A stretch of 64,000 nt of DNA from positions 1,322,001 to 1,386,000 of the forward strand of contig NZ_CP027229.1 of assembly GCF_002999135.1 (NCBI RefSeq). Direction: 5' to 3'. A program made the position numbers and the translations under genes. This DNA comes from Capnocytophaga sp. oral taxon 878 (GTDB taxonomy: Bacteria > Bacteroidota > Bacteroidia > Flavobacteriales > Flavobacteriaceae). How positions within the stretch are numbered: the first letter of the stretch is position 1; the number at the start of each line of letters is the position of its first letter. This document shows, one piece after another, positions 53,276 through 64,000 of the stretch. The notes under the pieces were generated by a model. It did no database searches, had not been told where the DNA came from, and saw only the letters and a program-made list of their open reading frames with translations.

Positions 53276-53715
53276 TTAAGGTGTCAAAGTATTTTCATAT
53301 ATTTGCACTCTGAAAATTAATGTATTATGCAATTATTCAAAGGACAAAGCCTCTTAGAGTTTACTGAACGCTTTAAAACAGACTTAGATTGCGAAGAATA
53401 TCTAGCTTCTTTAAAGTGGGAAGATGGATATTGCTGTCGCAAATGTGGTCATAAAAAATACCAAGTTCGCAAAGATTTTTCACGTACCTGTAATATCTGT
53501 GGAGATACAGAAAGTCCTACTGCTGGAACACTATTCCATAGACTAAAATTTGGGTTACGTAAAGCATTTTTTATATGTTTTGAAATGACAACTACAACTA
53601 AAGGGTTATAAGCCTTACAAGTTGCTCGTCGTTATGAAATTAGTCGTCAGACTGTACATTATTTTATGCAAAAAGTCCGTGAAGCTATGAAATCCAGTGA
53701 ATCGCACAAAAAACG
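53276..53715 (+). mobile_element. IS1595-family element, copy 1, truncated
   Basis: The left end (TTAAGGTGTCAAAG, matching the ends of copy 2 at 55283) and 5' half of the transposase gene remain. The right half has been lost where an IS5-type element is inserted. Confidence 0.75.
53327..53715 (+). pseudogene. IS1595 transposase, copy 1, interrupted
   Basis: N-terminal half of an IS1595 transposase. The zinc-ribbon is intact (CCRKCGH, CNICGD in a CxxC pair pattern), and homology to copy 2 continues through FKLRLKAF-like FGLRKAFFICFEM. A stop codon (TAA at 53609-53611) splits the frame between TTTTKGL and ALQVARRYEISRQ. The frame then runs on to KKR and ends at the IS5 left repeat. The DDE catalytic core is missing, so this copy is dead. 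Confidence 0.8.
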
Positions 53716-54601
53716 TGTTTAAACTTTTTTGAGGAACTTGGATATAAACCCTAATAAGAGCATTCCAATCCAAGTTACATCAAGATACTCATATCTCATT
53801 ATCAAACCTTTATATCCGTCAAGCCAACCATTTACTTGTTCAATTTTAAACCTATTTTTGTACAATTCTTCATCAAAATAAACATCTGGTTGCTCTCCAT
53901 TTCGGGGATTAGGTTTAATATTTGCTATAATTCCTTTGCTTTCTAAAAACTCTCTAAGAGATTTGCTATCAAATCCTGCATCAGCATTGAGAAATAGACC
54001 TTTGTGTTCTATTCCTGCTTCTTCTAATAAAGCTAAGATTTCTTTTAGTACTTCTTCTATTTCATATAAGTCATTGTGATTTCCAGCTTTAGGACTCCCC
54101 ATTGCTATCATTTGCCCTTTATTATCACACAAAAAAATGCTATTTGTAGTTACGGCTTTTTTCTTGCTTGATAGCCTGTAGATTCTTCTTTTTGCCGACA
54201 ACGTATATGACTACCATCCAATTGAAGACAAGACATATCTAACTTTCTTTTCTTCTTGCTTAAAAGATTCAACCATACTCGCTGAAAGCTACCATCTTTA
54301 CTCCATTTACTGAAGTAGTAATAGACATTTTGCCAAGAGATTTCTCCTTTTTCAAAATAGCTCTCAATTGGAAGTTCTCTCCATTGCACTCCTGTTTTTA
54401 ATCTCTTGAGAATCAATAAAATATTGAAGCTAAATCAAAATTACTTTTAAATCCTCTTTTTCCTACACTTAAAAAGGGAATAATCCAATTATTTATTGTA
54501 TCTTTGCCCAAAGTTCCTGAATTTTGGTGTTCTTTTTTTCTCAAACACAAAATTACTAATTTTCAGGAACTTTTATTTTATTATAGGAAAAAGTTTAAAC
54601 A
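53716..54601 (-). mobile_element. IS5-family insertion sequence inside IS1595
   Basis: About 886 bp bounded by perfect 14-bp inverted repeats TGTTTAAACTTTTT (53716) and AAAAAGTTTAAACA (54588-54601). It carries one transposase reading across two frames. It sits within IS1595 copy 1; sequence beyond the right repeat does not resume the IS1595 gene, so a deletion accompanied or followed insertion. Confidence 0.75.
53719..54416 (-). pseudogene. IS5-family DDE transposase in two frames
   Basis: The upstream frame (from 54416) gives LKTGVQWRELPIESYF and WSKDGSFQRVWLNLL and the first catalytic Asp in LQLDGSHIRC, ending at QARKKP. The downstream frame (to 53719) gives AVTTNSIFLCDNKGQMIAMG, second Asp in LFLNADAGFDSKS, and the Glu region KNRFKIEQVNGW. 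The frames join at the heptamer A_AAA_AAG (54156-54162), where a -1 shift would give one DDE protein. Upstream of the TTG start, an additional frame (VGKRGFKSNFDLASIF) looks like the real N-terminus cut off by an indel, so this copy is probably defective regardless. Confidence 0.7.
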
Positions 54602-55282: not shown

Positions 55283-56168
55283 TTGAGGTATCAAAATAAT
55301 TTCATATATTTGCACTCTGAAAATTAATGTATTATGGAATTATTTAAGGGACAAAGCCTCTTAGAGTTTACTGAACGCTTTAAAACTGACTTAGATTGCG
55401 AAGAATACTTAGCTTCCATAAAATGGAAAAAAGGGTATTGCTGTCGCAAATGTTGACATACAAAATACCAAGTTCGCAAAGATTTTTCACGTACTTGCAA
55501 TATCTGTTCAGATACAGAAAGTCCTACAGCTGGAACTTTGTTTCACAAGCTAAAATTTGGACTTCTCAAAGCATTTTATATATGTTTTGAGATGTCAACA
55601 ACTACAAAAAGTCTATCAACATCACAAGTTGCTCGCCGTTATGATATTAGTCGTCAGACTGCACATTAGATGAATTTACCATAGGAGGAAAAGAGGAAGG
55701 AAAACAAAGTAGAAGCTATGACACAAAGAAAAAGAAAGTTCTTTGAGCAATGGAACTTACTGACCCAAGGCAAAGTAAAGCGCTTTTACGCACTAAAAAT
55801 ACCTGATTTTTCCTCAAAATCATTACGAACAATATTTGACAAACATATTAGTAAAACAGCACAAGTTACTACTGACCAGTGGAAAGGATATAAACCTATA
55901 AAAGACTTTGATATAACTCAAAAACCGAGTAATGACGGAAAGAATTTTCCTACATTACATAAGGTAATACATCAAGTAAAATCTTAGATAAGAGGTATAT
56001 ATTCTTGGGTTTCAGAGTTTAATATAGACCGATATTTAGCTGAATACAGTTTTAGAATCAATCGCTCACAAAGCAAAGAGACTATCTTTAACAAATTAAT
56101 GAAAAGAATTGTAGAGCGTTCTCCCGTTTCCCAAAGTCAATTAGTATGTAGCTAAATAGACACCTCAA
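55283..56168 (+). mobile_element. IS1595-family element, copy 2, complete but decayed
   Basis: About 886 bp. The left end TTGAGGTATCA pairs imperfectly with the right end (reverse complement TTGAGGTGTCT). It is in the same orientation as copy 1, about 2 kb away. No target duplication could be recognised. Confidence 0.75.
55334..56155 (+). pseudogene. IS1595 transposase, copy 2, multiply broken
   Basis: Reading across frames recovers almost the whole transposase: zinc ribbon, then SQVARRYDISRQTAH, DEFTIGGKEEGKQ, TQGKVKRFYALKI, ITQKPSNDGKNFPTLH, and FRINRSQSKETIF to the terminal SQLVCS. Defects: TGA replacing Cys in the zinc ribbon (KC then stop), about 60 nt missing between RQTAH and DEFTIGG, a TGA after KKKKVL, a frameshift after AMELTD, and a TAG after HQVKS. 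It cannot make an active enzyme. Confidence 0.85.
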
Positions 56169-56409: not shown

Positions 56410-57405
56410 TTATTTAATCAAATCAATAAATTTTATTTTTCGGTTGTTTTCACCTGTTTTAGGGTCTTTATTGCCCCAATCTTTTATGAGGCAATAAATA
56501 CCATTGTGTTCTTTGAATATTTCCTTTTGGCAGCCCGAACAAACAGCAATTTCTTCTTTCTCTCCAAATAAATCAGCTTTTATTACTTTTACATTGTGTT
56601 GGCAGCTGCAAGGTACAACCCCTTTGAGTCCGTCCATTTGCCATAAATTCCAAGAGATAATGTAGGCAATGTATTTAATAGATTTTTCTAAAGGGCGCTT
56701 ACCAAATTTAGCTTCGTAATACTCTATGAATGAAACTAATAGTGCTTCCCGAGCTAATAAAAGGTTATCACCTTGCCATTCAAATCCGTAAATATTTTTA
56801 TAAGCCTCTTGAGCCATTTCAAGCCATTCACCTGAGGAGGTAGTATTTTCAGATATTACCCTTAGCTTTCGGTCTAACATTCCAATGCGTTGTTCAAGAG
56901 GAATAAATACTCCCGTAGTGGTGTCGTAACGACTTGCCAAATATGGTGCCTCTCCGCAACTTAACTCTATTCGGGTAGCGCGTACGTAATCTTTCCACGT
57001 TTTTCCTTCAGGAAAATTGATAGGAGTTGTTACTGATTTCCAAGTATGTTTATCGGTATCTTCAGCGTTAAAAACATTTTTACGCCCAAACCACGCTTCG
57101 TCTACTAAATTATTTTGAGCATTGCACACCCACGAGGGAGTAAACACTTCTGCCATTCCTTTGGTGCGTTCTGTTTGTTCTCCTTTTGATTTGATAACTC
57201 TGGGACGTATCACATTGCCATTTTCTCCCGTAATATGATCTACAGTAATGGCATCAAAATAAGTATATCCTTCTCCTTTAGTTGCATAACTATCTGTAGC
57301 CCAAAATATATTCTTTTGGGTAGTATGATCTTTTAGTAAAAGCGCAAAAACATCTTCAGACTGTTTAAAAAGTTCATTTTCACTTATATCAATTTTATTT
57401 GCCAT
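56410..57405 (-). CDS. N6-adenine methyltransferase-like R-M subunit without NPPY
   Basis: A 331-residue protein related to the N-terminal part of Eco57I-like methyltransferases. EVFTPSWVCN (86-95) matches motif X, and ELSCGEAPYLASRYD (147-161) matches the SAM-binding motif I (DPACGSG-like). The helical segment up to ISWNLWQMDGLKG follows, but no NPPY catalytic motif appears. A possible zinc ribbon is formed by Cys266, Cys268, Cys289 and Cys292, and the end is LIKDWGNKDP onward. It is divergent from the large restriction gene, with only 32 bp between the start codons. It may be a specificity or regulatory partner; catalysis on its own is unlikely. Confidence 0.65.
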   Translation of the reverse strand: MANKIDISENELFKQSEDVFALLLKDHTTQKNIFWATDSYATKGEGYTYFDAITVDHITGENGNVIRPRVIKSKGEQTERTKGMAEVFTPSWVCNAQNNLVDEAWFGRKNVFNAEDTDKHTWKSVTTPINFPEGKTWKDYVRATRIELSCGEAPYLASRYDTTTGVFIPLEQRIGMLDRKLRVISENTTSSGEWLEMAQEAYKNIYGFEWQGDNLLLAREALLVSFIEYYEAKFGKRPLEKSIKYIAYIISWNLWQMDGLKGVVPCSCQHNVKVIKADLFGEKEEIAVCSGCQKEIFKEHNGIYCLIKDWGNKDPKTGENNRKIKFIDLIK

Positions 57406-57437
57406 TAGTAGTTCCTATAATAAAAATTATACCTAAT

Positions 57438-60400
57438 ATGGCTACATTTGAACTTTCTCTAAAACCTCGCTTGATTTATATCTTTACCATTGCCGATGAA
57501 GCTCATAGCGACTGCGTAAAAATAGGTGAAACTACTTTTAACGGTGATGGGTTGCCCGAGGCTAATAGCAAAGAACTAAACAATGCCGCTCATAACCGCA
57601 TTAAGCAATATACCCAGACCGCTGGTATTAGTTACCAATTGTTACACACTGAACTCACTCTATTTTCTCGTGAGGGAAAGATAGGTCTCTTTAATGATAA
57701 GGAGGTTCACTCTGTATTAGAACGCTCTGGAGTAAAGAAAAAAGCTTTCAAAGGGGCTACTGAATGGTACTGTTGCGACCTTGCTACGGCTATAAAAGCT
57801 ATTGCTGCCGTAAAACAAGGTAGAAAAAGTCTGAAAACGGAGGATATTAGTACTACTGAATACCCTATTATTTTTCGCCCTGAACAATCTGAAGCTATAG
57901 AACGTACTGAAAAGCAGTTTAAAAAAGGGTCGCAGATGCTATGGAATGCTAAGATGCGTTTTGGGAAAACACTCTGTGCGCTGCAAGTAGCTAAAGACTT
58001 ACAAATGAAGCGCACCCTTATCGTAACCCACCGACCAATAGTAGATGCGGGTTGGTATGAGGATTTTGGAAAAATCTTCTATGATTGCCCTCATTATCAA
58101 TATGGCTCTAAAGACAAAGGAGAAACATTTGCCTCATTAGAAAAACTCACTCACAAAGGCACCCATTATGTGTATTTTGCTTCTATGCAAGATATGCGGG
58201 GCTCTAAAGAAGTAGGGGGTAAATTTGATAAAAATAACGAACTGTTCTCTACTACTTGGGACTTTTTGATAGTAGATGAGGCTCACGAAGGCACTCAAAC
58301 TGAATTAGGACAATCCGTAATCGCGCACTTAAAAGGTACAGACACTAAAGTATTGCGCCTTTCGGGTACTCCTTTTAATCTGCTTGATGACCACAAGGAA
58401 GAGGAAATCTTCACTTGGGATTATGTGATGGAGCAAAAAGCTAAGATAGATTGGGAAATTACGCACTTGGGAGATGCTAATCCTTATGCTGCACTACCTG
58501 CTATTCATATTTACACCTACGATTTGGGTAGGCTGATGAGTGACTATAGCGATGATGAAAAAGCGTTTAACTTCCATGAGTTCTTCCGTACCCGAGAAGA
58601 TGGTACTTTTGTACACGACAAGGATATTGACCGCTTTTTAACTTTACTTTGTGACGACAGTGAGAGTTTTTACCCTTATGCTAATGATACTTTTCGCAAG
58701 ATTTTCCGTCATACGCTCTGGATACTACCAGGGGTAAAAGCCGCTAAAGCCCTCAGTACTAAGTTGCAGCATCACCCTATATTTGGGACTTTCAAAGTAG
58801 TTAATGTAGCGGGCGATGGCGATGAAGAAGAAGAAAGTAGAGATGCTTTGGAATTGGTAAATAAAGCTATAGGCAAAGATTCTGACCAAAGCTATACTAT
58901 TACTCTTTCGTGTGGGCGCCTCACCACAGGGGTGAGTATCAAGCCTTGGACAGGGGTATTTATGATGGCAGGGGCTTATAGTACCTCAGCTGCGAGTTAT
59001 ATGCAAACAATCTTCCGCGTGCAAACACCTTACACCCATAACGGGCGTATGAAAACCGATTGTTATGCTTTTGATTTTGCTCCTGACCGCACCTTGCGCG
59101 TACTTGCCGAAAGTGCTAAAGTATCGGCTAAAGCAGGTAAACAAACTGAAGAAGACCGTAAAATATTAGGCGATTTTTTGAACTTCTGTCCTATAATAGC
59201 TATTGAAGGTAGCCAAATGAAGCCTTATGATGTAAAAACAATGCTGGGGCAACTGAAAAGAGCGCAAATAGAAAAAGTAGTGCAATGTGGTTTTGAAGAT
59301 GGAGCTCTCTACAATGACGAACTGCTTAAACTTACCGAAGTAGAACTCAAAGATTTTAGCGACTTGAAGGCTGCTATAGGGAAGACTAAAGCGATGCCAC
59401 AATCGGGTGATATTGACATCAATAAACAGGGGCTTACTAACGAACAATATGCTGAGAAAGAACGGCTTGAGAAAAAGAAGAAAAAAGACCTCAGCCCTGA
59501 AGAGCAAACGCGCTTAGAAGAACTTAAAGCCCTTGGCAGTCAGCGGCGGGAAGCGATAGCTATTCTACGGGGTATTTCTATTCGTATGCCTTTGTTGCTT
59601 TATGGAGCTGAGATAAAAGAAGATGAGGACAAAGAGCTTGCGCTTGACAATTTTGAGCATCTTGTAGACGATACCTCGTGGGAGGAGTTTATGCCACGTG
59701 GAGTAAGCAAAGAAGTTTTTAGGCGTTTTAAGCGTTATTACGACTCTGATATTTTTCGTGAGGCAGGCAAGCGTATACGCGAAATGGCACGTATGGCTGA
59801 CAAGTTTACCATAGAGGAGCGCATTAGTAGGATAGCGGCTATCTTTGCTACTTTTCGCAACCCTGATAAAGAAACAGTACTTACTCCTTGGCGGGTAGTG
59901 AATAGGCATCTGTCGGATTGCTTAGGAGGCTATTGTTTTATGGATGAGGATTTTGAGCAGCCCTTAGATGTGCCGCGCTATGTAACCAAACAAGGGGTAA
60001 CAGAGGAGGTATTTACCCCTAAGAGTGTGATTTTGGAAATCAACTCGAAGAGTGGATTATACCCTTTGTATGCTGCTTATAACATCTATCGCTCTCGTAT
60101 AGAAGAAGCTAAGAAAAAGTACAGAGAGGAAGTAGGTAGGCAATTAGCCTTGCAATTATGGGATGCAACCCTTGAAGAGAATATATTAGTAGTGTGCAAA
60201 ACCCCAATGGCACGCAGTATAACTAAACGTACATTGGCAGGCCTTAGAGAGACTACCGTACGTGCAGAATACTATCCTGAACTTATAGAAAACATTAGTA
60301 AACAGCCCGAAAGCGTAGTAAATATGCTACACGATGGCAAACGCTTTTGGCATTTTAACGATAAAGAATATATGAAGATAGACGCTATTATAGGAAATCC

Positions 60401-61358
60401 ACCGTATCAGGTAATGGATGGAGGAGCTGGAGCAAGTGCTGTTCCTGTATATAACAAGTTTGTAGAATTAGCAAAGGCATTGAAACCAGAATATATTTCA
60501 ATGATTATGCCTGCTAAATGGTACAGCGGAGGAAAAGGACTTAATGACTTCCGCAAATCAATGATTACTGATAAAAGAATAGTAACATTACACGATTTTA
60601 TTGATGGACACGATTGCTTCCCTACAGTAGATATTGCCGGAGGAATTTGCTATTTTCTTTGGAATAAATTATTTAAAGGAACTAGTACAATCACCACACA
60701 CTATCAAGGCATTGCTGTAAAAAGTGAACGAGAACTTAATTCAGGAGGAGTTTTTATAAGACATATAGAAGAACTGACAATACTTAACAAAGTGAAAAGT
60801 ACTTCAAAAATGTTTTTAAACATCTATTCTCGTAAGCCTTTTGGATTACCTACAACTGAAAAAGGTATGGAAAAAGGAGATATCAAGATAAGATACAATG
60901 GCGGCATAGCTTTTTTTGAAAGAGCTAAAGTAACAACTAACCGAGAATTAATAGATAAATGGAAAGTAATAATTTCAAGACTTACTGCAGAACACGCAGG
61001 TGAAACAGATAAAAACGGACAGAAGAAAATCATATCTACTTTGGAAATAATAGCACCCGAAGTGGTATGTTCCGAAACCTATTTGTTATTAAAAGTGTTT
61101 GATACAGAACAAGAAGCTGTTAAATTCACTACTTACATTAAAACTAAATTTGTCCGCAGTCTAATTGCTATGCTCACGCCTACCCAACAGCTTTCAAGAA
61201 GTAACTTTTCAGCTATCCCTTTGCAAAATTTTACTTCTTCAAGCGATATTAATTGGTCGCAAACCATTGAAGAAATTGATAAGCAACTTTATACTAAATA
61301 TCACCTTTCAGAAGATGAAATCGCTTTTATTGAACGAATGATAAAGCCAATGGCTTAA
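57438..61358 (+). CDS. Single-polypeptide restriction-modification enzyme (GIY-YIG, SF2 helicase, adenine methyltransferase, specificity region)
   Basis: A 1306-residue enzyme with the order known for Type ISP R-M proteins. Residues about 8-115 form a T5orf172-like GIY-YIG nuclease (LIYIFTIADEAHSDCVKIGE, HNRIKQY, KEVHSVLE, ATEWYCCD). The SF2 motor spans about 150-560: NAKMRFGKT (170-178), DEAH (280-283), LRLSGTPFN, and a C-terminal RecA half with SCGRLTTGVSI. The methyltransferase has EVFTP (857-861), ILEINSKSGLYPLYAA as a variant motif I, and NPPY at 987-990. The last 317 residues are the likely target-recognition part. Known Type ISP enzymes use an Mrr-type nuclease instead. The DNA over NPPY is repeated, inverted, at 63453-63493. 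Confidence 0.82.
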   Translation: MATFELSLKPRLIYIFTIADEAHSDCVKIGETTFNGDGLPEANSKELNNAAHNRIKQYTQTAGISYQLLHTELTLFSREGKIGLFNDKEVHSVLERSGVKKKAFKGATEWYCCDLATAIKAIAAVKQGRKSLKTEDISTTEYPIIFRPEQSEAIERTEKQFKKGSQMLWNAKMRFGKTLCALQVAKDLQMKRTLIVTHRPIVDAGWYEDFGKIFYDCPHYQYGSKDKGETFASLEKLTHKGTHYVYFASMQDMRGSKEVGGKFDKNNELFSTTWDFLIVDEAHEGTQTELGQSVIAHLKGTDTKVLRLSGTPFNLLDDHKEEEIFTWDYVMEQKAKIDWEITHLGDANPYAALPAIHIYTYDLGRLMSDYSDDEKAFNFHEFFRTREDGTFVHDKDIDRFLTLLCDDSESFYPYANDTFRKIFRHTLWILPGVKAAKALSTKLQHHPIFGTFKVVNVAGDGDEEEESRDALELVNKAIGKDSDQSYTITLSCGRLTTGVSIKPWTGVFMMAGAYSTSAASYMQTIFRVQTPYTHNGRMKTDCYAFDFAPDRTLRVLAESAKVSAKAGKQTEEDRKILGDFLNFCPIIAIEGSQMKPYDVKTMLGQLKRAQIEKVVQCGFEDGALYNDELLKLTEVELKDFSDLKAAIGKTKAMPQSGDIDINKQGLTNEQYAEKERLEKKKKKDLSPEEQTRLEELKALGSQRREAIAILRGISIRMPLLLYGAEIKEDEDKELALDNFEHLVDDTSWEEFMPRGVSKEVFRRFKRYYDSDIFREAGKRIREMARMADKFTIEERISRIAAIFATFRNPDKETVLTPWRVVNRHLSDCLGGYCFMDEDFEQPLDVPRYVTKQGVTEEVFTPKSVILEINSKSGLYPLYAAYNIYRSRIEEAKKKYREEVGRQLALQLWDATLEENILVVCKTPMARSITKRTLAGLRETTVRAEYYPELIENISKQPESVVNMLHDGKRFWHFNDKEYMKIDAIIGNPPYQVMDGGAGASAVPVYNKFVELAKALKPEYISMIMPAKWYSGGKGLNDFRKSMITDKRIVTLHDFIDGHDCFPTVDIAGGICYFLWNKLFKGTSTITTHYQGIAVKSERELNSGGVFIRHIEELTILNKVKSTSKMFLNIYSRKPFGLPTTEKGMEKGDIKIRYNGGIAFFERAKVTTNRELIDKWKVIISRLTAEHAGETDKNGQKKIISTLEIIAPEVVCSETYLLLKVFDTEQEAVKFTTYIKTKFVRSLIAMLTPTQQLSRSNFSAIPLQNFTSSSDINWSQTIEEIDKQLYTKYHLSEDEIAFIERMIKPMA
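60378..60418 (+). repeat. Inversion site, active copy (inverted repeat left)
   Basis: 41 bp within the methyltransferase gene coding IDAIIGNPPYQVMD. The first 26 bp are identical to the complement of 63468-63493; after one mismatch (third codon position) 14 more bp match. Confidence 0.85.
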
Positions 61359-61397
61359 AAACTAAAAATAGTATAGAGAGGGAAACTGTACGTTATT

Positions 61398-61428
61398 TTT
61401 GGTAATTCATCAATTATTGCTATTTTTG
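61398..61428 (+). promoter_or_regulatory. Promoter of the DUF1016 nuclease gene
   Basis: TTTG, 19-nt spacer, TATTTTTG; 28 bp before the ATG. It is inside the invertible segment and moves with the gene. Confidence 0.65.
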
Positions 61429-61456
61429 TACCTAAATATCAGTATCTGAAAATATT

Positions 61457-62497
61457 ATGAAAGATATTATAAATATCACCGACTACAAAGATTGGTTACA
61501 AGATCTGAAAGGGAAAATACAACAAAGCCAAATAAAAGCTGCTATTCAAGTAAATAGTGAGTTGTTACGCCTTTATTGGCAAATAGGGAAAGATATTGTA
61601 GAAAAACAAGCACAAGCTAAATGGGGAGATGGATTCTTGCAAACTCTTAGTGCTGATTTATGTAAAGAATTTCCTACAATAAAAGGTTTTTCATACAGAA
61701 ACTTAAAATCAATACGACAATGGTATTTGTTTTATAATCAGTTAGATATAATTGGGAAACAAGTTGTTTCCCAATTAGAAGTTTCTTTATTCAGCATTCC
61801 TTGGGGGCATCATATAATGATTATGCAACGTTGTAAGAATACTCAGGAAGCTCTTTTCTATGTACATAAAACGATAGAAAATCATTGGAGTCGTTCAGTA
61901 TTAGAGCATCAAATAGCACTAAACTTATATGTTCGGCAAGGTAAAGCAATTACGAACTTTCAACATCAATTACCTCCTGCTATGTCTGATTTAGCTCAAG
62001 AACTTACAAAAGACCCTTATATTTTTGATTTTCTGTCGATAACAGAAAATTACACCGAGAAAGAGCTCCAACAGTATTTAGAGGATAATATGACAAAGTT
62101 TCTGTTAGAGTTGGGTAAAGGATTCTGTTTCTATGGAAAACAAGTGCATATAAACGTAGGTGGAGATGATTTTTATATTGATTTACTTTTCTATAATGCT
62201 CATTTACATTGTTATGTAGTCGTAGAACTTAAAACTACAAAATTTAAGCCCGAACATATAGGACAACTGAAATTTTACGTTACAGCAGTGAATAAACAAT
62301 TGCGTACCGAAGGTGATGCCCCCACTATTGGGCTGTTAATCTGCAAAGACAAAAATAATGTAATAGCTGAATATACTTTAGAAGATATACACAACCCCAT
62401 AGGAGTTTCGTCATATAAATTATTTGATGAACTTTCAAAAGATTATCAATCATCTTTACCTAGTATTGAAGAAATTGAAAAACGATTGTTAGATTAG
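61457..62497 (+). CDS. DUF1016/YhcG PDDEXK nuclease
   Basis: A 346-residue protein with both DUF1016 domains. The N-terminal part (about 10-170) has LLRLYWQIGKDIVEKQAQAK, GFSYRNLKSIRQWYLFY and SIPWGHHIMIMQRC. The C-terminal PDDEXK nuclease core includes FYIDLLFYNAHLHCYVVVEL followed by KTTKFKPEHIGQLKFY, giving the D...ExK arrangement. The family is often found inside or beside restriction loci. It has its own promoter, sits between the active and silent specificity cassettes, and would reverse direction on inversion. It ends at a bidirectional terminator. Confidence 0.85.
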   Translation: MKDIINITDYKDWLQDLKGKIQQSQIKAAIQVNSELLRLYWQIGKDIVEKQAQAKWGDGFLQTLSADLCKEFPTIKGFSYRNLKSIRQWYLFYNQLDIIGKQVVSQLEVSLFSIPWGHHIMIMQRCKNTQEALFYVHKTIENHWSRSVLEHQIALNLYVRQGKAITNFQHQLPPAMSDLAQELTKDPYIFDFLSITENYTEKELQQYLEDNMTKFLLELGKGFCFYGKQVHINVGGDDFYIDLLFYNAHLHCYVVVELKTTKFKPEHIGQLKFYVTAVNKQLRTEGDAPTIGLLICKDKNNVIAEYTLEDIHNPIGVSSYKLFDELSKDYQSSLPSIEEIEKRLLD

Positions 62498-62500
62498 AAT

Positions 62501-62537
62501 AAATAGCGTACAGCTCTCCTTGCTGTACGCTATTTTT
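62501..62537. terminator. Bidirectional terminator inside the invertible segment
   Basis: Perfect 14-bp arms AAATAGCGTACAGC / GCTGTACGCTATTT, 7-nt loop, T run. It ends the DUF1016 gene and also lies 3 bp beyond the stop of the silent cassette, so it could terminate either cassette. Confidence 0.85.
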
Positions 62538-62539
62538 TA

Positions 62540-63480
62540 CTATTCCATAGGTCTTATCATTTTCTCAATATAGGCTATTTCTTCAGGGGTAAGCCCATAT
62601 TTTTTATATAGTTTTTCATCTGTCCACTCCTCATCAAAGTTTTGTTGAGGTACAAATTGATAAAACTCTTTGGTTGAGTGTTGGGTATTTTTCTTTAAAG
62701 TTAAGCAGAAATGTAGAAATTTAGTCCCTATATATTGCATTACATTCTCACACTGTTTTTTAGTAGCAAAAGGACCTATTACTAAGTAGGTTTCTGTACA
62801 GCAAGAATTAGGCTCAGCATAAATAGGATTAACTTTATCAGTCTTGCTGTCGCCACTTCCTACAGCATAAGGAACAATTACTTTATGCTCTTTTATCCAA
62901 TGTTGATTTTTTAAAACTCCTTCTTTCTTAATATATCCAACTCCTCCATTCACATAGATTTTAATAGCTCCTTCAAACGGTTCACTTTCTCCTTTAAAAT
63001 AGGTTCTTAATCCAAAAGGTTTTGCTGAACTCATCAATTCACTAAAACTTTTTTCATTAAAAGATTGTATTTTTCTCAGAATAGGAATAGCTTCATTATA
63101 TCTGATAAAAACATCTGCATTATTTTCTTTAAGAGGACGCTTCAAGGCTGACACACAGATTCCATTTTCATAAGTACGAATAAGACAATCTCCTTTATAT
63201 TCCTTATCCCAAAGAAAATAATTAACACCTCCTTTGATTTCTATTGAAGGAAATACCTCTGAAGCATTCGGATAATCGTGTATTACTTTTATTCGTTTAT
63301 CTTTAAGCATTGCTTTGCGAAAATCATCTAACCCTTTGCCACCAGCGAACCACCTACTAGGGGTAATCATACTAATGTATTTAGGATTGAGTTTCATAGC
63401 TTGTTGAATAAACAACTGATAAATAGGCTTTGCACTAGCTTGTGCCCCTCCGTCCATTACCTGATAGGGTGGATTTCCTA
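62540..63480 (-). pseudogene. Silent alternative methyltransferase C-terminal/specificity cassette
   Basis: Reads (from NPPYQVMDGGAQASAKP) as a second version of the last part of the large R-M enzyme, but lacks nuclease, helicase and motif I. Counting from Tyr of NPPY it encodes 308 residues. Ends are conserved with the active copy (YISMITPSRWFAGGKGLDDF, KLYKKYGLTPEEIAYIEKMI), while the middle (about residues 50-250) differs, as expected of alternative target-recognition domains. A TAA stop lies four codons before the repeat, so no longer protein is possible. It is probably silent storage and not decayed: the open frame is intact. Confidence 0.8.
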
Positions 63481-63493
63481 TAATAGCGTCTAT
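63453..63493 (-). repeat. Inversion site, silent copy (inverted repeat right)
   Basis: Inverted partner of 60378-60418: 40 of 41 bases identical, core of 26 bp perfect. Homology with the active gene begins exactly at this repeat. Confidence 0.85.
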
Positions 63494-63510: not shown

Positions 63511-63552
63511 TTGTAACCACTATAATATAAAATTCAAACAATATGGTTACAA
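63511..63552. promoter_or_regulatory. Inverted repeat over the recombinase start codon
   Basis: TTGTAACCA (63511-63519) and TGGTTACAA (63544-63552) form a 9-bp inverted repeat around an A/T-rich 24-nt spacer; the right arm includes part of the ATG. A candidate operator or recombinase-binding site, or a structure limiting translation. Confidence 0.4.
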
Positions 63553-64000
63553 CCTTTGAAACTGCTCTCAAAGAGAGCCAAATGGCAGAAAATACCATCA
63601 CTGCCTATCTATATGCTGTAAACGATTTCTACGGTAAGTACAAATCCCTCAGCAAGAAAAACCTTTTGCTCTACAAAACATACCTTATCGAGCATTTTAA
63701 ACCTAAAACGGTGAACTTGCGCATTCAAGCACTGAATAAGTTTTTGGAACATATCGGTAAGCCTAAACTTCGACTTAAATCAGTAAAGGTGCAGCAACGC
63801 ACCTATTTAGAAAATGTGATCAGTCAGGCAGATTACCTCTTTTTAAAAGAACAACTCCGAAAAGAAGAAAACCCAATGTGGTATTTTGTAGTGCGCTTTT
63901 TGGCAGCTACAGGAGCAAGGGTAAGCGAGCTTATCCAAATAAAAGTAGAACACGTAAAAGTTGGCTATTTCGATCTATACACTAAAGGAGGCAAAGTGCG
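63543..64000 (+). CDS. Tyrosine recombinase (phage-integrase family), 5' part
   Basis: Start and 152 codons of a site-specific tyrosine recombinase; the gene runs past the window end. The N-terminal SAM-like core-binding domain covers about 1-85 (TFETALKESQMAENTITAYL, LRIQALNKFLEHIGKPKL). The catalytic domain begins with ISQADYLFLKEQLRKEEN and includes the first catalytic Arg in ATGARVSELIQIKVEHV. The remaining His-x-x-Arg and Tyr are outside the window. It starts 49 bp from the right inversion repeat and points away, the usual position for a dedicated invertase in Bacteroidota shuffling loci. Confidence 0.88.
   Translation, partial: MVTTFETALKESQMAENTITAYLYAVNDFYGKYKSLSKKNLLLYKTYLIEHFKPKTVNLRIQALNKFLEHIGKPKLRLKSVKVQQRTYLENVISQADYLFLKEQLRKEENPMWYFVVRFLAATGARVSELIQIKVEHVKVGYFDLYTKGGKV

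What the first reader, a model, noticed from the sequence alone, without database searches (positions are those of the whole stretch)
60378..63493. Invertible specificity switch in a single-polypeptide restriction-modification enzyme
A 41-bp inverted repeat (40 of 41 identical; 26-bp perfect core) lies over the codons for IDAIIGNPPYQVMD in the active gene and at the beginning of an oppositely oriented, promoterless C-terminal cassette. Inversion keeps the frame: residues 1-989 plus 308 new residues, 1297 in total. DNA identity stops just after the repeat, although the proteins stay similar (AGASA vs AQASA in different codons). Homology of the silent cassette to the gene also starts exactly at the repeat, with a stop codon four codons before it. 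That fits a recombination site kept identical by exchange, not plain gene duplication. hsdS inversion in Type I systems is known; inversion of the C-terminus of a Type ISP-like enzyme is, as far as I know, not a standard description.
Basis: partly seen in the sequence, partly recalled or inferred. Interest (0 to 1): 0.95.

Follow-up and report, generated by a model that had tools for sequence, protein, structure and literature searches.

The report
Flip-switch in a DNA-guarding enzyme
In a Capnocytophaga genome a restriction-modification gene shares a short inverted repeat with a silent spare back half, beside a recombinase gene, and a related species carries much of the stretch between the repeats the other way round, so the enzyme likely changes the DNA sequence it recognises by flipping that stretch.

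Summary
The finding does not mention the recombinase, cut off by the window end: a 267-aa PsrA-family tyrosine recombinase (62% to PsrA, the hsdS invertase) begins 49 bp after the silent repeat. Capnocytophaga bilenii carries 2276 bp of the segment inverted (96.7%), ending exactly on the repeat, between collinear flanks; its active protein has the window's silent C-terminus (98%) and the predicted length, 1297 aa. The repeat alone is weak evidence (codon control P=0.004), but both arms change together between relatives, and they are the two best matches in the window to a site beside a 90%-identical hsdS recombinase of the same genus, in another reading frame. ATTATAGG is in 7 of 7 arms of invertible loci and 0 of 70 other sites. 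The enzyme is not single-polypeptide: an M gene accompanies it. Best reading: an hsdS-type inversion module working on a two-gene Eco57I-type R-M system, exchanging half the methyltransferase plus the presumed target-recognition part. Switching within one strain and the change of motif are untested. Type II R-M genes have, as I recall, been predicted as inversion targets, so this is a new variant of a known kind.

The parts
56410..57405 (-). M gene, 331 aa, divergent from the R-M gene; PADLOC MTase_II; carries AEVFTPSWVCN and ELSCGEAPY (motif X- and I-like by eye) and no NPPY
   Evidence: found near the R-M gene in 77 of 80 loci
57438..61358 (+). R-M gene, 1306 aa: weakly T5orf172-like N-terminus, ResIII helicase (146-313), Eco57I methyltransferase (914-1061), presumed C-terminal target-recognition region; active C-terminus A
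60378..60418 (+). Active-side inverted repeat arm on codons IDAIIGNPPYQVM; holds the ATTATAGG core
60378..63493 (.). Predicted invertible segment, 3116 bp
   Evidence: 2276 bp of it (61218-63493) inverted in C. bilenii (L014)
61398..61428 (+). TTTG-N19-TAnnTTTG, a promoter-like sequence of Bacteroidota type (consensus recalled), before the DUF1016 gene and inside the segment
   Evidence: 9 matches in the window, 1.68 expected in shuffles
61457..62497 (+). DUF1016/YhcG PDDEXK nuclease-family gene, 346 aa, inside the segment
   Evidence: a gene annotated as PDDEXK nuclease domain-containing also lies in a Segatella hsdS locus
62540..63493 (-). Silent C-terminal cassette B, 317 codons from the repeat to the stop; in-frame stop four codons upstream of the repeat
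63453..63493 (-). Silent-side inverted repeat arm
63543..64000 (+). PsrA-family tyrosine recombinase, 267 aa; continues past the window to position 64346 (L003:9543-10346)

Best explanation
The locus is likely a phase-variable specificity switch in which a PsrA-family recombinase encoded beside it is predicted to flip the 3.1-kb segment between two inverted repeats on the codons of catalytic motif IV, which would exchange the back half of a two-gene Eco57I-type restriction-modification enzyme for a silent alternative. Shown here: the repeats, the silent cassette, the adjacent recombinase gene, the inverted arrangement in C. bilenii, substitutions shared by both arms, and the match of the arms to an hsdS site beside a closely related recombinase. 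Inferred: that this recombinase cuts here, that switching happens within one strain, and that cassettes A and B recognise different sequences. The inversion module looks taken over from Type I hsdS inversion loci like those in the same genus. A slower second layer, replacement of cassette middles between the repeat and a conserved tail, appears to add new alleles.
For: (1) L014 (C. bilenii): 2276 bp match inverted at 96.7% and end exactly on the repeat, between collinear flanks (90.1% over 4064 bp upstream; 82.7% over 891 bp at the recombinase); its active C-terminus is 98% identical to the window's silent one and DUF1016 is reversed. (2) Recombinase: PF00589 1.1e-24, 62% to PsrA. Of 60 related loci with at least 2.5 kb downstream, the 3 with an inverted cassette are the 3 with a close recombinase (these 3 were also in the search profile). 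(3) Site: a 27-bp sequence before a 90%-identical recombinase next to inverted hsdS genes in G009 matches the arms 23/27 and 22/27, next best in the window 17, at most 20 in 300 shuffled sites; hsdS and the R-M gene read it in different frames. (4) ATTATAGG in 7 of 7 arms of L014, L020, L023, L024 and 0 of 70 other sites. (5) Both arms carry the same lineage-specific change: GACACT in C. bilenii against GACGCT here; GATGCC in L020 against GACGCC in L024. (6) Proteins with no mismatch in 972 (P0002/P0038) or 984 (P0019/P0032) upstream residues and C-termini 18-27% identical (P0019 is a truncated form). (7) The model of residues 856-1306 (pLDDT 90.9) matches N6-adenine methyltransferases, best CamA, BrxX, M.BseCI (TM about 0.5-0.6); the exchanged part runs from motif IV on.
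Against: No reads were available: both orientations of one strain have not been seen. C. bilenii is another species, its other cassette is a third type, and its inverted stretch is more similar (96.7%) than the flanks (90%), so horizontal exchange probably took part. C-terminal swaps also occur, more rarely, among other relatives: at 97% or more upstream identity, 50 of 826 pairs against 30 of 52 in this set (pairs are not independent). The 27-bp site was picked by eye for its match to the silent arm, and the silent arms of L020 and L024 match it no better (19) than several non-invertible sites. The ATTATAGG contrast rests on about two independent lineages. Of two further hits found by the repeat core, one (L121) has the recombinase and inverted silent cassettes but its active gene lacks the core, and one (G710) has no recombinase match. 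G370 has the recombinase, but no relative of this R-M gene was found there. The repeat identity alone is only modestly above codon expectation. That specificity changes is inferred from sequence and fold only.
Confidence: 0.85

Rival explanations
1. The locus once inverted but is now static: the cassettes differ between species through rare recombination and horizontal exchange, not ongoing switching.
For: The inverted stretch in C. bilenii is more similar than its flanks and the other cassette is a third type; cassette middles appear replaced while tails stay (A against C: 43 of 46 identical in the tail, 73 of 259 before it); some C-terminal swaps also occur among other relatives.
Against: The recombinase frame is intact; arms stay matched and change together; identical upstream parts carry different C-termini.
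Confidence: 0.1
2. Homologous recombination between the repeats, without the neighbouring recombinase, makes the inversions.
For: Less frequent PsrA-independent hsdS inversions are reported in pneumococcus (passages of PMC7096588; title and start of abstract of PMC6620402).
Against: 30-41 bp is short for homologous recombination (recalled); a close recombinase goes with the inverted cassette in 3 of 3 informative loci and none was found in the other 57 of 60; the arms match the hsdS site of a close recombinase.
Confidence: 0.04
3. Plain duplication of a gene end, with the repeat kept identical only by the codons of a conserved protein motif.
For: The motif is conserved at DNA level in the family; P=0.004 only against codon usage.
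Against: Inverted arrangement in C. bilenii, shared arm changes, ATTATAGG in 7 of 7 against 0 of 70, recombinase next door.
Confidence: 0.01

Closest known systems
Inverting Type I R-M systems (hsdS inversion by PsrA, pneumococcal cod/SpnD39III locus, and others surveyed in REBASE)
   Same: Locus-encoded recombinase of the same family (62% to a protein annotated PsrA), short inverted repeats, active gene plus silent oppositely oriented copy, exchange of recognition sequence; a gene annotated PDDEXK nuclease domain-containing is also present in one Bacteroidota hsdS locus
   Different: No hsdS here: the flipped part belongs to the R-M polypeptide itself and runs from motif IV on, so half the catalytic domain goes with the recognition part; the repeat lies in motif IV codons
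Gene-altering programmed inversions including Type II R-M genes (Milman et al. 2023, NAR; not held here, content recalled, only the reference seen)
   Same: Intact gene plus shorter silent partner in opposite orientation sharing a repeat
   Different: Not compared directly; whether this family or locus is in their list is unknown to me
Type ISP enzymes (LlaGI, LlaBIII; recalled)
   Same: Helicase, N6-adenine methyltransferase and presumed C-terminal recognition region in one chain
   Different: Separate M gene; weakly T5orf172-like N-terminus; 1306 aa
Type IIG / Eco57I-type R-M (PADLOC REase_MTase_IIG)
   Same: PADLOC model match 5.8e-59, best stretch over the C-terminal quarter
   Different: Has a ResIII helicase and a separate M protein; cleavage mode unknown

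Membership tests
Type ISP R-M | single polypeptide without separate M or S | tested here: not met
   M gene nearby in 77 of 80 loci; the 3 others hold at most 284 bp upstream; that M is needed was not tested
Type ISP R-M | Mrr-type N-terminal nuclease (recalled) | tested here: inconclusive
   No Mrr match in Pfam at E 0.01; T5orf172 in 15 of 15 N-termini given (14 chosen of 80 loci, plus the window), best 3.7e-5, own 0.0018 and just under the curated cut-off
Type ISP R-M | helicase plus N6-adenine methyltransferase and recognition region | tested here: met
   recognition role by position and fold match only
Type IIG R-M | cleavage at a fixed distance from the site, restriction and methylation in one chain | not testable with these tools
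   sequence only; PADLOC match
Inverting Type I (hsdS) system | hsdS genes with PF01420 domains | tested here: not met
   R-M gene and cassette match Eco57I, not PF01420
Inverting Type I (hsdS) system | locus-encoded PsrA-family recombinase | tested here: met
   hsdS-linked relatives in the same genus
Programmed gene-altering inversion | intact gene and silent partner in opposite orientation sharing an inverted repeat | tested here: met
Programmed gene-altering inversion | both orientations found in nature | tested here: met
   window against C. bilenii L014; between species, not within a strain
Programmed gene-altering inversion | both orientations within one population | not testable with these tools
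   no reads

The most novel reading that the evidence does not exclude
The hsdS invertase module (PsrA-type recombinase, with or without a DUF1016 gene) is a portable specificity switch that has jumped from Type I systems onto a second class of restriction enzyme. It did so because the codons of the catalytic NPPY motif can be written to match the recombinase's site in another reading frame, so one flip replaces half the catalytic domain together with the recognition part and re-aims restriction and methylation at once.
Probability: 0.6. Interest if true: 0.75.

Novelty: new variant of a known kind. Interest (0 to 1): 0.64.

Why it matters
If true, one inversion would change restriction and methylation specificity of an enzyme together, possibly controlling a phasevarion and phage defence in a Bacteroidota genus. 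It would also show that an invertase family known from hsdS can serve another enzyme class when its site coincides with a catalytic motif, and it gives a DNA signature (ATTATAGG within the NPPY codons, inverted partner, PsrA-type gene) for finding more. Cassettes exchangeable at motif IV may also help engineer specificities.

Tried and rejected
Repeat identity as proof by itself: rejected, since codon conservation of the motif explains much of it. Solved-structure search by sequence: no relative of the R-M protein or its C-terminal profile; the M profile gave only weak hits (best E 0.23). M as the missing SAM-binding half of a split methyltransferase: not established; its model (pLDDT 87.4) matches BrxX best, at E 0.23 only, and the R-M protein has its own full-length Eco57I match. 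L005 as an independent second example: rejected, identical to L014. Co-switching of DUF1016 expression: considered, but the gene has its own promoter-like sequence inside the segment, so expression in both orientations is more likely. Viral contigs with the R-M protein gave one relative (L096, not analysed further); with the recombinase two loci in which no match to our R-M gene or cassettes was found (L097, L098). Literature: 10 searches gave, as far as the listings, starts of abstracts and passages that I saw show, no description of inversion in this enzyme family; the most relevant paper was not held.
Full report
WHAT IS THERE. The window is G000:C1:1322001-1386000 of a 2.99-Mb genome. Its genus is Capnocytophaga: G001, listed as same genus, gave L005, which is 100% identical over its 6888 bp to the C. 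bilenii locus L014. Order: M gene (-, 56410-57405), R-M gene (+, 57438-61358), DUF1016 gene (+, 61457-62497), silent cassette B (-, 62540-63493), recombinase (+, 63543 to 64346, past the window end; L003:9543-10346). The R-M protein has ResIII (1.2e-16) and Eco57I (1.1e-29) domains; the cassette matches only model positions 103-171 of Eco57I. The inverted repeat is 40 of 41.

HOW STRONG IS THE REPEAT ALONE. 12 of 14 codons are identical where local codon usage predicts 6.9 (P=0.004); against identical codons at shared residues downstream (62 of 113) Fisher P is 0.035. Sites of related loci also resemble each other at this motif (mean 25.7 of 32 bases). So the repeat is suggestive only.

THE OTHER ORIENTATION EXISTS. 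The search for related loci kept the best 80 loci of 268 relatives. In L014 the order is M, R-M upstream part, cassette B in the active position (98% protein identity to the window's silent cassette), DUF1016 reversed (98%), a third cassette C inverted, recombinase. At DNA level L003:7218-9493 matches L014:13215-10941 on the opposite strand at 96.7% over 2276 bp, ending exactly at the outer edge of the repeat, while upstream (4064 bp, 90.1%) and recombinase (891 bp, 82.7%) are collinear. L014 has its own repeat, 36 of 37; L020 (Candidatus Parabacteroides) and L024 (Bacteroides sp.) have 30 of 30. L023 has a partial cassette cut by the contig end.

ARMS EVOLVE TOGETHER. C. bilenii has GACACT in both arms where the window has GACGCT in both; L020 has GATGCC in both arms where L024, 95% identical to it over 9 kb, has GACGCC in both. 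That is expected if the arms exchange strands.

THE RECOMBINASE. 267 aa, PF00589 1.1e-24, 62% identical over 266 positions to a Streptococcus protein annotated as DNA invertase PsrA. PsrA inverts hsdS genes at a 15-bp repeat and needs the adjacent upstream sequence (abstract and passages of PMC7096588). Of the 80 loci, 60 hold at least 2.5 kb downstream; 3 have an inverted cassette and these 3 have the recombinase (531-539 bits to a profile that includes them); the best other match in the 80 loci is 33.6 bits. In a draw of 395 genomes of the phylum only the window's genome and G370 matched at E 1e-40, with at most 6 candidates scored per genome. In the genus, 8 of 20 genomes, ours included, have a homologue at E 1e-30 or better. 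Apart from own and G001 I read all six: G002, G007, G008, G009, G013 (61-90% identical) have inverted repeats around the recombinase, and in four of these five the neighbouring proteins tested match PF01420 (hsdS); in G007 the one protein tested gave no Pfam match although the neighbourhood resembles G013. G011 (98%) begins at a contig edge 64 bp before the recombinase, so its partner is not seen. Of 16 plasmid records with a match I looked at the three best (73.8, 67.9, 62.4%): all have annotated S subunits next to or near the recombinase; the Segatella locus also has a gene annotated PDDEXK nuclease domain-containing. In G370 a PF01420 protein adjoins it and no relative of our R-M protein was found.

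THE SITE. Before the G009 recombinase lies CTATTATGAGAAGTTCACCCTATCAGG at the start of the inverted hsdS. Its two best matches in the whole 64-kb window, both strands, are the silent arm (23 of 27) and the active arm (22); the next best is 17. In 300 shuffles of the site the best match in the window never exceeded 20. The 27-mer was chosen after seeing the silent arm, which inflates that score; the reading frames differ between hsdS and the R-M gene, which argues against shared protein as the cause. The pattern found 77 motif sites in 72 of the 80 loci. The four best matches to the G009 site are both arms of L014 (23, 22) and the active arms of L020 and L024 (20); the silent arms of L020 and L024 score 19, level with L023 and with six non-invertible sites. 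ATTATAGG occurs in 7 of 7 sites of L014, L020, L023 and L024 and in 0 of 70 others; the residue before GNPPY is Ile (ATA) in 7 of 7 and Val in 67 of 70. L020, L023 and L024 are 93-95% identical, so these are about two independent lineages. Looking forward with the core: an IMG/VR contig proved to have a 77% recombinase and an inverted pair of silent cassettes sharing a 33-bp repeat, though its active gene lacks the core; the only hit besides our own among 395 genomes of the class had no recombinase match.

WHAT IS EXCHANGED. The C-terminal 451 residues model at pLDDT 90.9 and match N6-adenine methyltransferases (CamA 4.0e-17, BrxX 1.7e-14, M.BseCI, BpuSI, M.TaqI, MmeI; TM by query length about 0.6 for CamA). 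The repeat starts at model residue 126 and NPPY is 132-135, so inversion would exchange everything from motif IV on. A and B share 16 of 16 residues at the repeat and 103 of 257 from there to residue 1260; A and C share 73 of 259 there but 43 of 46 in the tail, which suggests replacement of cassette middles between repeat and tail.

POPULATION EVIDENCE. Of 250 listed database proteins 43 have at least 83% upstream identity to ours. 41 of these plus the window's own were put on a tree of the upstream parts; their C-termini fall into 10 groups, which need at least 18 changes on it (P0050 and P0122 are not in it). Groups are clustered slightly more than in shuffles (as low in 3 of 200). P0002/P0003 against P0038 and P0019 against P0032 have no mismatch in 972 and 984 upstream residues but different C-termini; P0019 ends early inside cassette B. 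At 97% upstream identity 30 of 52 pairs in the set (43 rows with ours) differ in C-terminus against 50 of 826 pairs among the other 200; at 99.9% 3 of 4 against 0 of 18. Pairs are not independent, and the 50 show that swapping also occurs elsewhere. Contexts of these proteins could not be fetched.

CLASSIFICATION. It works like an inverting Type I system but is not one (no hsdS). It is not Type ISP as defined (separate M). PADLOC calls the parts Type IIG and Type II methyltransferase. Function of M and DUF1016 here is unknown; M is probably required, judging by conserved neighbourhood.

NOVELTY. Inversion of hsdS is well known (starts of the abstracts of PMC4948785 and PMC7394358 in the listing; passages of PMC7394358). 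Milman et al. 2023 predicted Type II R-M as a target family; this is recalled, the paper was not held. The hsdS-type module on an Eco57I-type two-gene system, the natural opposite orientation and the site in motif IV codons were not found described in the searches listed under Tried and rejected.

Noticed in passing
P0019, P0021, P0024, P0026, P0033: Five database proteins end at the same point inside cassette B (1174-1175 aa) on different upstream backgrounds; possibly an inactive allele, which would make flipping an on/off switch there.
   Followed up: partly
P0050: A database protein with 91% upstream identity ends exactly within the repeat (NMKIDAIIGNPP); this may be an assembly break at the invertible repeat.
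   Followed up: no
L121:4889-12905: IMG/VR contig with an active gene lacking the repeat core, two further silent cassettes in inverted pair with a 33-bp repeat, and a 77% recombinase: a three-cassette or locked variant.
   Followed up: partly
window 57405-57438: The M gene is divergent from the R-M gene with only 32 bp between starts (about 36 in C. bilenii), whereas it is on the same strand upstream in the 76 other loci where it was found.
   Followed up: no
window 53327-53611, 53719-54416, 55718-55987: Transposase remnants: IS1595-type zinc ribbon and DDE pieces on either side of an IS4/5-type transposase in two frames.
   Followed up: partly
L003:10935-19883 (just past the window end): 2982-aa protein with a Type IX secretion signal domain (CHU_C), Ig-like domains and long internal repeats.
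   Followed up: no
L006, L008, L122: Second family, as 501-513 aa methylase ORFs with the same C-terminal half (36-62% identical); beside L006 and L008 a separate ORF of 851 or 817 aa matches the helicase part; no inverted cassette or recombinase match in the short stretches held.
   Followed up: partly
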